Assembly (NCBI RefSeq): GCF_002795805.1
Contig: NZ_CP018799.1
Location: 613,001-677,000, forward strand
Reading direction: 5' to 3'
DNA from: Mariprofundus aestuarium
Lineage (GTDB): Bacteria > Pseudomonadota > Zetaproteobacteria > Mariprofundales > Mariprofundaceae
Length of the DNA stretch: 64,000 nt
Shown: piece by piece, positions 59,588 through 64,000 of the stretch
How the letters are laid out: each line of letters starts with the position of its first letter
Numbering within the stretch: the stretch's first letter is position 1
Translations under genes and position numbers: made by a program
Notes under the pieces: generated by a model
What the model was told of the DNA's origin: nothing
Database searches by the model: none
Seen by the model: the letters and a program-made list of their open reading frames with translations, nothing else

Positions 59588-59640
59588 GTCTAACCTTGTG
59601 CGTTAGAAGTTAAGCCAAGAGACTTATTTCCTTAAAAGAC

Positions 59641-59673
59641 AAAGGGCCCGCAGTGATGAACTGCGAGCCCTTT
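59641..59673 (-). terminator. Hairpin, terminator-like on the minus strand
   Basis: A 14-bp stem (59641-59654 with 59660-59673) and a 5-nt loop. The single mismatch is C-A on the plus strand and G-U on the minus strand, and the T-rich tail (TTTGTCTTTT) is also on the minus side. It resembles the hairpin at 61521-61553. Confidence 0.65.
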
Positions 59674-59706
59674 ATGGGGGCAAGCTTTAGCTTAAACTTG
59701 CTTGCT

Positions 59707-59793
59707 TTAGCAAGATAATTCCCAGGCTGGAATTTCAATAAATACCTTATCAACCGGCAGGGTGAATTGGTTGTCAGCTTTGACAGCCGTGTG
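59707..59793 (-). pseudogene. Possible 3' remnant of a minus-strand gene
   Basis: A minus-strand frame ending at 59707 reads HTAVKADNQFTLPVDKVFI and then EIPAWELSC, which looks like the C-terminal end of a normal protein. It has no start or upstream continuation, and a minus-strand terminator follows directly. It may be the tail of a gene replaced by the DUF523 region. This is a weak call. Confidence 0.2.
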
Positions 59794-60807: not shown

Positions 60808-60843
60808 GGGATATCGTCTTATGAGATCCAACTGGCGGTTTTG

Positions 60844-61470
60844 ATGAAGAAACGAATCATTTGGATAGTAGCAGTTTTGCTGTTGATTTCTTTCGCGCTT
60901 TGGGGGCCCATTGTGAGTAATGTCGAGCAAGCTAGATATACTGTGATTGAAACGTACGGAGAGATCGAAATCAGGGATTATGCTCCGATGATTGTGGCGG
61001 AAACCGAAGTGGCAGGTGAACGAAAAGATGCCATCGGCCAGGGGTTCAGAATTATCGCCGATTATATTTTCGGAAATAACAGACAGTCCAATAAGGTGGC
61101 GATGACTGCGCCGGTCATGCAGCAGCCCAGTGAGAAAATCGCCATGACCGCGCCGGTCATGCAGATGGCTGAAAACAGCGCATGGAAAATCCGATTTGTA
61201 ATGCCGTCAAGTTATACTATGGCCACATTGCCAACTCCGAATAATGATAAAGTGAGGTTGCGGGAACTGCCTGGCAAACGTTTTGCGGTTATCAAGTTTT
61301 CTGGCACAGCAAGCCAATCAAACCTCAAAGAGAATAGTGAACTGCTGGCTGATTTTATAAACAGGAAAAACATGATTGTGTTGTCTGAGCCAGCGTTTTC
61401 ATTTTTCAATCCACCTTGGACGCTCCCTTTTTTACGAAGAAATGAAGTGATGGTTGAGATTTCCAAGTAA
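60844..61470 (+). CDS. SOUL-family heme-binding protein
   Basis: Protein of 208 aa with an N-terminal membrane helix (about 4-24), then a SOUL/HBP domain. Repeated KVAMTAPVMQ and KIAMTAPVMQ segments, the RFVMPSSYTMATLP stretch and FNPPWTLPFLRRNEVMVEI at the end are family hallmarks. SOUL proteins bind tetrapyrroles in some cases. It lies 36 nt after the DUF523-DUF1722 gene; SOUL and DUF523/DUF1722 genes are often found together. Confidence 0.9.
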   Translation: MKKRIIWIVAVLLLISFALWGPIVSNVEQARYTVIETYGEIEIRDYAPMIVAETEVAGERKDAIGQGFRIIADYIFGNNRQSNKVAMTAPVMQQPSEKIAMTAPVMQMAENSAWKIRFVMPSSYTMATLPTPNNDKVRLRELPGKRFAVIKFSGTASQSNLKENSELLADFINRKNMIVLSEPAFSFFNPPWTLPFLRRNEVMVEISK

Positions 61471-61520: not shown

Positions 61521-61553
61521 AAAGGGCTCACGGTGATATGCCGTAAGCCCTTT
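61521..61553 (-). terminator. Terminator of the tRNA-fMet gene (minus strand)
   Basis: A 13-bp stem AAAGGGCTCACGG / CCGTAAGCCCTTT with a 7-nt loop. The lone mismatch becomes G-U on the minus strand. A TTCTTT tail follows on that strand, 8 nt from the CCA end of the tRNA piece. Confidence 0.75.
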
Positions 61554-61560
61554 GCATGTT

Positions 61561-61605
61561 TGGTTGCGGGGGCCGGATTTGAACCGACGACCTTCGGGTT
61601 ATGAG
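61561..61605 (-). other. Integration junction: 3' 45 nt of initiator tRNA-fMet
   Basis: On the minus strand this reads the 3' part of initiator tRNA, from CTCATAACCCGAAGG to GGCCCCCGCAACCA, identical in my recollection to the E. coli fMet sequence over all 45 bases. Identity stops exactly at the 5' edge of the anticodon loop: after CTCAT the expected GTCGGG partner is replaced by unrelated DNA. This is a typical tyrosine-integrase att core. The 5' half of the tRNA is not in the window, so it should lie at the far end of the island. Confidence 0.9.
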
Positions 61606-61626
61606 TAGAACTAGCATCACCTTCTT

Positions 61627-61794
61627 TGCAAACCATTCAACACCCATTCAACACCCTATACTTTAATAGTGTTGATATATAACGAATTATGGCTACTGTT
61701 GGACACTCGTTAAGCGCCCGACCATCGGGCATTGATGCAAACCATTCTGCAAACCAACCGTTATTTTTCAGGTTTGCAAACCTGAATGCAAACC
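61627..61794 (+). repeat. Arm-type repeat cluster upstream of the integrase
   Basis: Five copies of TGCAAACC at 61627, 61736, 61748, 61775 and 61787, all in the same direction. Copy four lies inside a perfect 16-bp palindrome CAGGTTTGCAAACCTG (61769-61784). A tandem 11-bp repeat CATTCAACACC occurs at 61634 and 61645, with an inverted TCAACAC / GTGTTGA pair (61648 and 61669). They probably bind integrase, excisionase or a regulator. Confidence 0.75.
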
Positions 61795-61836
61795 TGCAAG
61801 AGTGGACTTGAAGGTAACTAATGGAGTCTGAAATAT

Positions 61837-62898
61837 ATGGCAATTATCGAACGAAATGGCAACTTTCGTGTACAAGTAGGCAAAAGAATAAACGGCAAGT
61901 ACACCATCCTATTTGATGCCACATATGATTCTAAAGAAGAGGCCACTGCTGTAGAGGGAGTAAAAAAATTAAAGCTCAAGGAAGGAGAGCTTGGAGATTA
62001 CCGGTCAGCTAAAAAAGTGACACTTTCAGACCTGTTGCTACGTTATAAGAAAGAGATTGTTCCTCATGTAACTAACTACCCAAATCGAGAAAATTCAAAA
62101 ATTGAAGGGATTAGAAAGCGGAAGTTTGCAAAAAATACTGTTGCTAAACTTAAGCCTATTCACTTTTCACAATACCGTGATGAACGAAGATTAGAGAAAG
62201 GCCGTGGTGGTGGTCTAATAAAGAAAAAAACCATTAAAGAAGAGCTGGCACTTATGGCGCGAGTTCTTGATTACGCGGCATCGGAGTGGGAGGTGAGTCT
62301 TCCCGCAGGCAATCCTGTAAATGTTCGAACACTATTAAAGTTACTCCCAAATGATTCCATAAAACGCAAACCTCTTCCTCGTGATGATAACGGTAAATCT
62401 TATGGTTCTGAACGTGAGTTGATTAAGGCCTGTGCTGCATATGCTGATGGGGAGCTTGCGCTGTATATGCGTTTTGCTATTGAAACCTCTTGTAGGCGTA
62501 GCGCTCTTGTTGACTTAAAATGGGAGAATATTTCCATTGATAAACGAATTGCAGTTGTCCGACAAAAAGGGCGTTCAAAAGACGAAACATATAAAGTCCC
62601 ATTAACACGCCGAGCAATTGCCACATTGAATAGGCTCGGTGTTAAAAAAGCAGGAAAGGTGTTTAGCTGGACACACCCGGATTCAATCAACACGGCTTTG
62701 AATCGTGCTTGCGAAAGGGCAGGGATCGAGAAAATAACTCCTCATCAACTTAGGCATGAGGCGACTACTCGCGCTCAAGCAAGGCGTTGGACATCTGCAG
62801 AGGTTAAAGCACTTACTGGCCATAAAACCACTCAGATGCTTGATAATTATGGTCATCTTGGAGCAGAAGATATATTACCATTGATGAAGAATAAGTAA
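61837..62898 (+). CDS. int: Tyrosine-type site-specific integrase
   Basis: Integrase of the phage type, 353 aa, which would drive insertion of the island into tRNA-fMet. The N-terminal arm-binding domain (about 1-60) and SAM-like core-binding region are followed by the catalytic domain. Catalytic residues are visible: arginine in ETSCRRSALVDLKW near residue 219, HQLRHEATT near 303, TGHKTTQMLDNYGH with the nucleophilic tyrosine near 337. The gene starts 232 nt inside the att junction and points into the island. Confidence 0.95.
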   Translation: MAIIERNGNFRVQVGKRINGKYTILFDATYDSKEEATAVEGVKKLKLKEGELGDYRSAKKVTLSDLLLRYKKEIVPHVTNYPNRENSKIEGIRKRKFAKNTVAKLKPIHFSQYRDERRLEKGRGGGLIKKKTIKEELALMARVLDYAASEWEVSLPAGNPVNVRTLLKLLPNDSIKRKPLPRDDNGKSYGSERELIKACAAYADGELALYMRFAIETSCRRSALVDLKWENISIDKRIAVVRQKGRSKDETYKVPLTRRAIATLNRLGVKKAGKVFSWTHPDSINTALNRACERAGIEKITPHQLRHEATTRAQARRWTSAEVKALTGHKTTQMLDNYGHLGAEDILPLMKNK

Positions 62899-62910
62899 AA
62901 AGTATTGACT

Positions 62911-62940
62911 TTTACATGTTATGTAACATACTGATATAAT
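62911..62940 (+). promoter_or_regulatory. Strong promoter with embedded palindrome
   Basis: TTTACA (62911), 18-nt spacer, then perfect TATAAT (62935). The spacer holds ATGTTA-TG-TAACAT (62916-62929), a perfect inverted repeat that is a good operator candidate. It drives the structured leader and the AlpA-like gene. Confidence 0.65.
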
Positions 62941-63238
62941 TGAATTATTTTAATTTAGCCCCTTGACTTTTAGACTTGAGCACATTATGTTTGCGCTCGG
63001 CCATTTGGATTAGTGAGATGAATATATAGGTTCCCAGAATCTCAAAAAAGCGACCAAGTGTAATATGCGGCTACAGTCGAAAAGACTGTAGCAGGGAATA
63101 AGAGGGCAGGGAGAAATCCTGTCACGCCATCTTCAGACATAGGATTGCGACGGTCACTCAGAGAAAACCGTTTCCTTTGCGAGGGGTCGAAACCTACTAA
63201 ATCCGTTTTACGGGTAAGGGTAGCTTTGGACTGCTGAG
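62941..63238 (+). ncRNA. Structured untranslated leader, possible regulatory RNA
   Basis: About 300 nt with no coding frame between the promoter and the AlpA-like gene. Hairpins include a perfect 9-bp stem GCTACAGTC-GAAAA-GACTGTAGC (63070-63092), GGCAGG / CCTGTC (63105-63123, one wobble), ACGGT / ACCGT (63149-63171 region) and CTAC...CCGT-TTT-ACGG...GTAG (about 63194-63233). In P4-type satellites a short structured RNA (CI/C4 type) sits in this position and controls premature termination; similarity here is by place and structure only. Confidence 0.4.
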
Positions 63239-63478
63239 ATGAAGGAATTAATAATATCAATTGAAGAGCTTGCTGACATTCGAGGGTGTTCTACTCGGAC
63301 AATCAAAAACATCTTATGGAGTGATAAGAGTGTAACTTTACCGCCAGCTCATAAGCTTGGTCGTAAAGTATTTTTCTTGAAGTCGGAAGTTGAAGACTGG
63401 CTAAGAAATGCACCTGTTATTAATGCGCCTGCGCAGCCAGTTCGTCGAGGGCGTCCAAGAAAGAACGGGAAACTATAA
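63239..63478 (+). CDS. AlpA/excisionase-like DNA-binding protein
   Basis: Small DNA-binding protein of 79 aa. A MerR-like helix-turn-helix (HTH_17 type) is formed by SIEELADIRGCSTRTIKNIL, followed by LPPAHKLGRKVFFLKSEVEDWL. The tail RRGRPRKNGK resembles an AT-hook. Such proteins act as excisionases or activators of integrase in satellites and islands. No clear ribosome site near the ATG (CTGCTGAG only). Confidence 0.8.
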   Translation: MKELIISIEELADIRGCSTRTIKNILWSDKSVTLPPAHKLGRKVFFLKSEVEDWLRNAPVINAPAQPVRRGRPRKNGKL

Positions 63479-63494
63479 TGGGCAGTACTCCTAC

Positions 63495-63590
63495 ATGAAT
63501 AAATATCTAAAAAGCACATGCGTCCCTAGTAATAGGAGCTGTTGCGGAACCAAACGGTCTAAAGGCATTATAAGTGGTGGCATGCGATGA
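63495..63590 (+). CDS. Possible 31-aa peptide coupled to the next gene
   Basis: MNKYLKSTCVPSNRSCCGTK and a short basic tail, ending in TGA that overlaps the next ATG (ATGA). It has three cysteines. It may be a leader peptide or chance frame. Confidence 0.25.
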   Translation: MNKYLKSTCVPSNRSCCGTKRSKGIISGGMR

Positions 63591-64000
63591 GAATTGGTTT
63601 GGAAATAATAATCAATCAAATACCAATCATTGATGACAATGAGAAACAAAGACTTATCAGTGAAATTCCACTTGATTCACTCATTCAGTCTGATGTTCAT
63701 GCTGCATTAGACCAAATGAGACAATACTTAAGTTCATTATCGACCATGATTGATGATGAAAAAGTAAAAGAAAATCTTCGTGACCTAATGAATAAAATTG
63801 AAAGTGCAGGCGTCATGTATGATCTGAATATCGAAACCTTTGAATGTAGCGAATGTGCGTTTAGGCGAATCGATTATGAACAAAATATTGAACATAATGA
63901 TTTTGATGGCGAATATATTCTTGAATATGAAAATGCATGCCTAGAGTGTTTTGAATGTGGGAATGAATATCAGCAAGCATGGAACAGTACTTGTTCAGTT
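63587..64000 (+). CDS. Unrecognised zinc-ribbon protein, cut by the window end
   Basis: Open frame of 138 codons from ATG to the window edge. The first 85 residues are acidic and helical (start MRIGLEIIINQIPIIDD). The visible C-terminal part has two cysteine pairs, CSEC and CLEC-x-EC, that form a likely zinc ribbon, followed by GNEYQQAWN. Codons are AT-rich like the rest of the island. No family recognised. Confidence 0.7.
   Translation, partial: MRIGLEIIINQIPIIDDNEKQRLISEIPLDSLIQSDVHAALDQMRQYLSSLSTMIDDEKVKENLRDLMNKIESAGVMYDLNIETFECSECAFRRIDYEQNIEHNDFDGEYILEYENACLECFECGNEYQQAWNSTCSV

What the first reader, a model, noticed from the sequence alone, without database searches (positions are those of the whole stretch)
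61561..61605. Island inserted into the initiator tRNA-fMet gene
Only the 3' 45 nt of the tRNA remain, ending exactly at the anticodon loop, with an integrase pointing inward. Initiator tRNA is essential if single copy, so the far end should rebuild a complete tRNA-fMet from an element-borne 3' half. The island thus runs from 61606 to an unseen intact tRNA beyond 64000.
Basis: partly seen in the sequence, partly recalled or inferred. Interest (0 to 1): 0.65.

Follow-up and report, generated by a model that had tools for sequence, protein, structure and literature searches.

The report
Defence island inside initiator tRNA gene
A 27.5-kb mobile DNA element carrying anti-phage genes has inserted into the middle of a bacterium's start-codon tRNA gene and rebuilt that gene at its far end, a textbook insertion with two less usual details: it brings its own transcription stop signal, and a second, integrase-less stretch lies beyond it with another complete copy of the gene.

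Summary
Confirmed. Window 61561-61605 is exactly the 3' 45 nt of tRNA-fMet (minus strand), cut at the first base of the anticodon loop, with a tyrosine integrase at 61837-62898 pointing inward. The genome (2.54 Mb, one contig; probably Mariprofundus aestuarium CP-5) holds just two more copies of the 45-mer, both in intact tRNA-fMet genes, 27.5 and 33.5 kb to the right. Joining the outer flanks gives one uninterrupted alignment (79% over 1263 bp) with a relative that has a single tRNA-fMet at this site. So the predicted intact gene exists, 25 kb beyond the window. Element A (27.5 kb, 43% GC against 52%) is a mobilisable-type integrative element with a defence cargo: type III restriction-modification, Kiwa, a PLD/SNF2 helicase cluster and a GmrSD-like protein. 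Three other species of the genus carry an island cut at the same place. Overall this is a new member of a well-known kind.

The parts
61561..61605 (-). Displaced 3' 45 nt of tRNA-fMet (anticodon loop to CCA), the attachment-site remnant at element A's left end
   Evidence: Exact 45-nt match to the two intact genes of the genome; no 5' half in the window
61521..61553 (-). Intrinsic-terminator hairpin of the displaced 3' end on the native side (13-bp stem, then T-run)
   Evidence: Fold -21.4 kcal/mol; flank 62-66% identical to the corresponding flanks of the right copy and of the relative G008
60841..61470 (+). Host flank: 209-aa protein, read here as a SOUL/heme-binding-like gene (name not tested); next to the intact tRNA-fMet in the empty-site relative
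   Evidence: 91% identical and syntenic in G008
61606..64000 (+). Left 2.4 kb of element A (element continues to G000:C1:702124, i.e. 25.1 kb past the window end)
   Evidence: Boundary fixed by divergence from the tRNA at the anticodon loop and by the empty-site alignment
61625..61796 (+). Putative integrase arm-type sites: repeats of TTTGCAAACCATT / TGCAAACC at about 61625, 61736, 61748, 61773 and 61786
   Evidence: Same-orientation copies also at the other end of the element (G000:C1:701980 and 701991)
61837..62898 (+). Tyrosine integrase, 353 aa, most likely the recombinase of element A
   Evidence: Pfam PF00589 E=3.2e-17; PHROG integrase E=2e-39; 61% identical to the integrase of a tRNA-fMet island in G020
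63239..63478 (+). 79-aa helix-turn-helix protein, probable excisionase/AlpA-type regulator
   Evidence: Pfam HTH_17 E=4.5e-8; PHROG 66 excisionase/regulator E=1.9e-6
63587..64000 (+). Element ORF of unknown function, 140 aa, runs past the window end
   Evidence: ORF call; no Pfam or PADLOC match

Best explanation
Element A (G000:C1:674606-702124, 27.5 kb) is an integrative, probably mobilisable element. Its tyrosine integrase recombined the element's attachment site with the host tRNA-fMet gene, most likely inside the 7-nt anticodon loop. The host's own 3' half and terminator were pushed aside and now lie at 61521-61605. The element's own copy of the 3' half, followed by the element's own terminator, completed the host 5' half at the far end, so initiator tRNA is never lost. 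Shown: fragment, intact far copy, empty site in a relative, element-borne terminator, arm-type repeats at both ends, integrase, relaxase, defence cargo. Inferred: exact crossover point, present mobility, and dependence of transfer on a helper conjugation system. Next to it lies region B (702155-708067, 5.9 kb: UmuC-like polymerase, GAF protein, PAS histidine kinase, no integrase), also with arm-like repeats at both ends but bounded by two complete tRNA-fMet genes. The likeliest reading of B (about 0.5, well below the confidence given here, which is for A) is an older integrated element whose attachment site was a complete tRNA-fMet gene with promoter and terminator, and into which A later inserted.
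For: Three exact copies of the 45-mer, two of them complete genes. Joined flanks of G000 align without a break to G008 over 1263 bp, with conserved gene order HAD - tRNA-fMet - 209-aa gene - DUF523-like gene. GC 43.0% (A) and 43.7% (B) against 52-53% on both flanks. Arm-type repeats shared by both ends of A (TTGCAAACCATT) and of B (AGTGTCCCAAAATTGTCCCA, 20 bp). Related element in G020 with a 61% identical integrase, same cut point, and a 3' flank with terminator 89% identical to A's but about 50% to native flanks. In G020 and G012 the rebuilt gene and displaced fragment differ by a compensating T-stem pair (T51:A63 rebuilt in G020, C51:G63 rebuilt in G012), as expected if the 3' half comes from the element. 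Mob_Pre relaxase; type III methylase/nuclease, KwaA and KwaB, PLD/SNF2 helicase.
Against: The A part has no serious contrary evidence; the 3' halves of A and host are identical in this genome, so the swap is visible only in relatives. For B: no integrase, no relative with the same left end, and no independent example of such an element. In several other species of the genus two tRNA-fMet genes stand in tandem about 61 bp apart, so an old gene duplication is possible. The middle copy does, however, have its own -35/-10 promoter, unlike the second tandem copies there.
Confidence: 0.93

Rival explanations
1. The extra intact tRNA-fMet between A and B comes from an ordinary tandem duplication of the host gene; B was then inserted into or between the copies, and the usual 3' remnant at B's left end was deleted.
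For: Tandem tRNA-fMet pairs are common in the genus. The 44 bp upstream of the middle gene are 80% identical to those of the right gene.
Against: No trace of a 3' fragment at B's left end (score no better than shuffled sequence, p=0.36). The second tandem copies in relatives lack a promoter and carry a different 5' flank (ACACCCTGA), unlike the middle copy. The closest relative (G008) has a single gene.
Confidence: 0.3
2. A and B are one 33.5-kb composite element that arrived together, carrying an internal complete tRNA-fMet gene.
For: Nearly equal GC (43.0 and 43.7%); together they make up the whole insertion relative to the empty site.
Against: Each part has its own, different arm-type repeats at both of its ends. 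The related island in G020 has A-type ends only, between a fragment and the intact gene.
Confidence: 0.15
3. The 45 nt are only the remains of a decayed duplicate tRNA gene, not an integration scar.
For: tRNA gene fragments are common in bacterial genomes.
Against: Exact 45-nt identity, an abrupt end at the anticodon loop at the same base in four species, an adjacent integrase, a GC shift at the boundary, and a clean empty site.
Confidence: 0.01

Closest known systems
tRNA-targeted genomic islands with anticodon-loop attachment sites (Islander database, PMC4383910)
   Same: 3' fragment displaced, intact gene at the other end, tyrosine integrase between, crossover at the anticodon loop (2083 of the Islander islands are anticodon-centred)
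   Different: Element A supplies its own terminator; the neighbouring stretch B has a complete gene at both ends and neither fragment nor integrase, so it would fail Islander's test for tandem islands
metV islands of Escherichia coli (PMC7545054, PMC2907695)
   Same: Island at an initiator-tRNA gene; metV is listed among the most frequently targeted tRNA genes in E. coli
   Different: E. coli has several initiator tRNA genes (own knowledge); the ancestral site here had one. Cargo differs (defence here, type VI secretion there)
ICEKp1 in tRNA-Asn (PMC13023037)
   Same: tRNA-integrated element with a tyrosine integrase
   Different: ICEKp1 displaces the tRNA terminator and lets the tRNA promoter drive int. 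Here the element brings a strong terminator, and int sits at the opposite end, beside the displaced fragment
tRNA-dependent lysogeny of actinophages (PMC10865867)
   Same: Mobile DNA that guards against loss of an essential tRNA; region B may have brought a complete promoter-bearing tRNA gene
   Different: There the shared core is about 10 bp, no tRNA is rebuilt, and a separate phage tRNA gene compensates; here the gene is rebuilt through a 45-bp core

Membership tests
tRNA-targeted genomic island (Islander definition) | Intact tRNA gene at one end and same-orientation displaced fragment at the other | tested here: met
   674561-674605 and 702080-702154, same strand
tRNA-targeted genomic island (Islander definition) | Tyrosine integrase gene inside the interval | tested here: met
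   PF00589, E=3.2e-17
tRNA-targeted genomic island (Islander definition) | Empty site in a relative | tested here: met
   G008, 79% over 1263 bp without a break
Integrative and mobilisable element (IME) | Own integrase and own relaxase | tested here: met
   Mob_Pre PF01076 E=1e-17 at L004:7792-9669; integrase
Integrative and mobilisable element (IME) | No type IV secretion genes of its own | tested here: inconclusive
   None among the ORFs of 80 aa or more that were searched; small or unsearched ORFs remain
Integrative and mobilisable element (IME) | Excision and transfer with a helper | not testable with these tools
   Needs culture experiments
tRNA-dependent lysogeny element | Short core (about 10 bp) so that no tRNA is rebuilt | tested here: not met
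   45-bp core and rebuilt gene for A; complete genes at both ends of B
ICEKp1-type tRNA-driven integrase | Loss of the tRNA terminator, with int directly downstream of the tRNA gene | tested here: not met
   Element-borne terminator of -24.4 kcal/mol; int lies at the opposite end
Tandem island array (Islander definition) for A plus B | Each member has its own integrase and fragment | tested here: not met
   B has neither

The most novel reading that the evidence does not exclude
Region B is the relic of an element whose attachment site was a complete initiator-tRNA gene with its own promoter and terminator. Its integration left two working tRNA-fMet genes, a second attachment site for later islands such as A, and a host that can no longer lose initiator tRNA through island turnover.
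Probability: 0.45. Interest if true: 0.45.

Novelty: new member of a known kind. Interest (0 to 1): 0.27.

Why it matters
It explains the cut tRNA without any loss of function, locates precisely a defence-rich mobile element in an iron-oxidising zetaproteobacterium, and shows that one tRNA-fMet site is used by several different elements across the genus. If element-borne terminators prove general in this group, they mark a choice opposite to ICEKp1, which displaces the terminator and uses the tRNA promoter to drive its integrase.

Tried and rejected
Decayed duplicate gene: rejected by the empty-site alignment. A 3' fragment at B's left end: searched by local alignment, none. B's left end in other genomes: only the promoter part matches other tRNA-fMet genes, plus one short unrelated hit in G003. 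B's histidine kinase as a marker: useless, as relatives of it are everywhere in the family. B's UmuC: 90% identical copy in G003 beside other recombinase-like genes but with no tRNA gene nearby, so the donor of B is not identified. Idea that a terminator is present only where int is far from the tRNA: rejected, since G024 has int right downstream of the tRNA behind a strong terminator. Integrase relatives in viral contigs: none; phage and plasmid records hold only distant ones, about 30% or less at full length. The Rfam Thr_leader hits are below the gathering score and are ordinary terminator hairpins.

Full report
What was checked. The window is G000:C1:613001-677000 of a single-contig 2,537,610-bp genome. 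Its size matches Mariprofundus aestuarium CP-5 (2.54 Mb, PMC5513912). A relative, G020, is M. micogutta ET2 by exact contig length (249,769 bp). G008 (2,301,665 bp) fits M. ferrinatatus CP-8. The names of G000 and G008 are inferred from size and kinship only.

Positions 61561-61605 read on the minus strand as tRNA-fMet from the first base of the anticodon loop (CTCATAA) to CCA. There is no 5' half in the window and no complete tRNA. An integrase of 353 aa starts 231 bp inside and points away from the fragment.

The prediction is right too. The 45-mer occurs three times in the genome: 674561 (fragment), 702080 and 708068 (both complete tRNA-fMet, identical in sequence). The nearest intact copy is 27.5 kb from the fragment. 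Joining the left flank plus fragment to the right flank of the last copy gives a sequence that aligns without a break to G008 over 1263 bp at 79%. There a single tRNA-fMet lies between the same neighbours, in the same order. That is the empty site.

Element A (674606-702124) has 43% GC against 52-53% around it. Same-orientation repeats of TTGCAAACCATT lie at both ends, the expected layout of integrase arm sites. Cargo in order: integrase, HTH regulator, a DUF3427/NO VEIN-C protein, a small second recombinase, a Mob_Pre/RepB-type relaxase, a PLD+SNF2 helicase with a DUF4391 partner, a GmrSD-C protein, type III methylase and nuclease, KwaA and KwaB, an AAA ATPase and a metallophosphatase. No conjugation apparatus was seen among the ORFs searched, so it is best called a putative mobilisable element.

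The 3' half and the terminator come from the element. In G020 an island with a 61% identical integrase sits in the same gene. The sequence just behind its rebuilt tRNA, hairpin terminator included, is 89% identical to that behind the rebuilt tRNA here, whereas either is only about 50% identical to native flanks. In G020 and G012 the rebuilt gene and the displaced fragment differ at T-stem pair 51:63, C:G in one and T:A in the other, so pairing is kept. Most other tRNA-fMet genes of the group, with or without a visible island, also have a strong hairpin right behind them. This contrasts with ICEKp1, which displaces the terminator and uses the tRNA promoter to drive int (PMC13023037).

The site is a hot spot. 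Four of the genomes examined in the genus (G000, G012, G015, G020) carry a fragment that begins at the same anticodon-loop base (G015's shares one base more, which may be chance), with four different upstream sequences. Their integrases differ: that of G020 is 61% identical to A's, that of G012 about 30%, and no relative of A's integrase is found in G015, which has other recombinases there.

Region B. Between the two intact genes lie 5.9 kb (43.7% GC) with a UmuC-like polymerase, a GAF protein and a PAS histidine kinase, and no integrase. Both ends share a 20-bp same-orientation repeat, AGTGTCCCAAAATTGTCCCA. The region upstream of the right-hand gene is host-like and matches G008. Upstream of the middle gene only about 44 bp (the promoter, TTGACA-17-TATGGT) resemble tRNA-fMet promoters; beyond that the sequence has no match in the family's genomes apart from one short hit. 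With the single-copy empty site and the absence of any 3' remnant at B's left end, the simplest account is that B arrived with a complete, promoter-bearing tRNA-fMet gene. Older gene duplication remains a serious alternative, because tandem pairs occur in the genus, though there the second copies lack a promoter.

Comparison with what is known. Islands that split a tRNA gene at the anticodon loop and restore it are a large, well-described class (Islander, PMC4383910), and the initiator gene metV is among the commonest targets in E. coli (PMC7545054). Element A is therefore a new member of a known kind. The papers found here, which are not an exhaustive search, did not describe an element bounded by two complete tRNA genes like B.

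Limits. No excision or transfer was tested. Fold energies are predictions. The names of G000 and G008 are inferred. Coordinates beyond 64000 are genome coordinates; subtract 613000 for window-equivalent ones.

Noticed in passing
L006:5483-5835 and G000:C1:733419-733771: 353 bp covering the 3' end of region B's histidine kinase occur as a 99.7-100% identical inverted copy 25 kb further right: a recent duplication.
   Followed up: partly
L006:5815-5928; G000:C1:2366054, 1834646, 1833184: A dispersed repeat of about 110 bp (91-93% identical), fold-prone, with the look of a small non-coding mobile repeat.
   Followed up: partly
L004:5554-5639 (G000:C1:679553-679638): A borderline tRNA-like sequence inside element A (ARAGORN Val-GAC, 86 nt; Rfam tRNA 29.7 bits against a cut-off of 29) beside a 237-aa second recombinase, which has a 240-aa sibling at 1328663.
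   Followed up: partly
G020:C1:236071-247801 and G012:C20:112010-122682: Rebuilt tRNA-fMet and displaced fragment differ by a compensating T-stem pair (51:63), so islands replace one functional version of the initiator tRNA by another.
   Followed up: partly
G020:C1:247757 onwards: A second island with its own integrase and TTGCTCCA repeats starts directly behind the displaced fragment in M. micogutta: another stacked array at this site.
   Followed up: partly
L121:3827-9013 (G003:C3): Several adjacent recombinase-like genes (754, 188, 485 and 177 aa) next to a UmuC gene 90% identical to that of region B; a possible lead to where B's cargo came from.
   Followed up: no
window 59637-59711: Sub-threshold Rfam Thr_leader hit that is just a terminator hairpin of the type seen behind tRNA-fMet genes in this genus.
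   Followed up: yes
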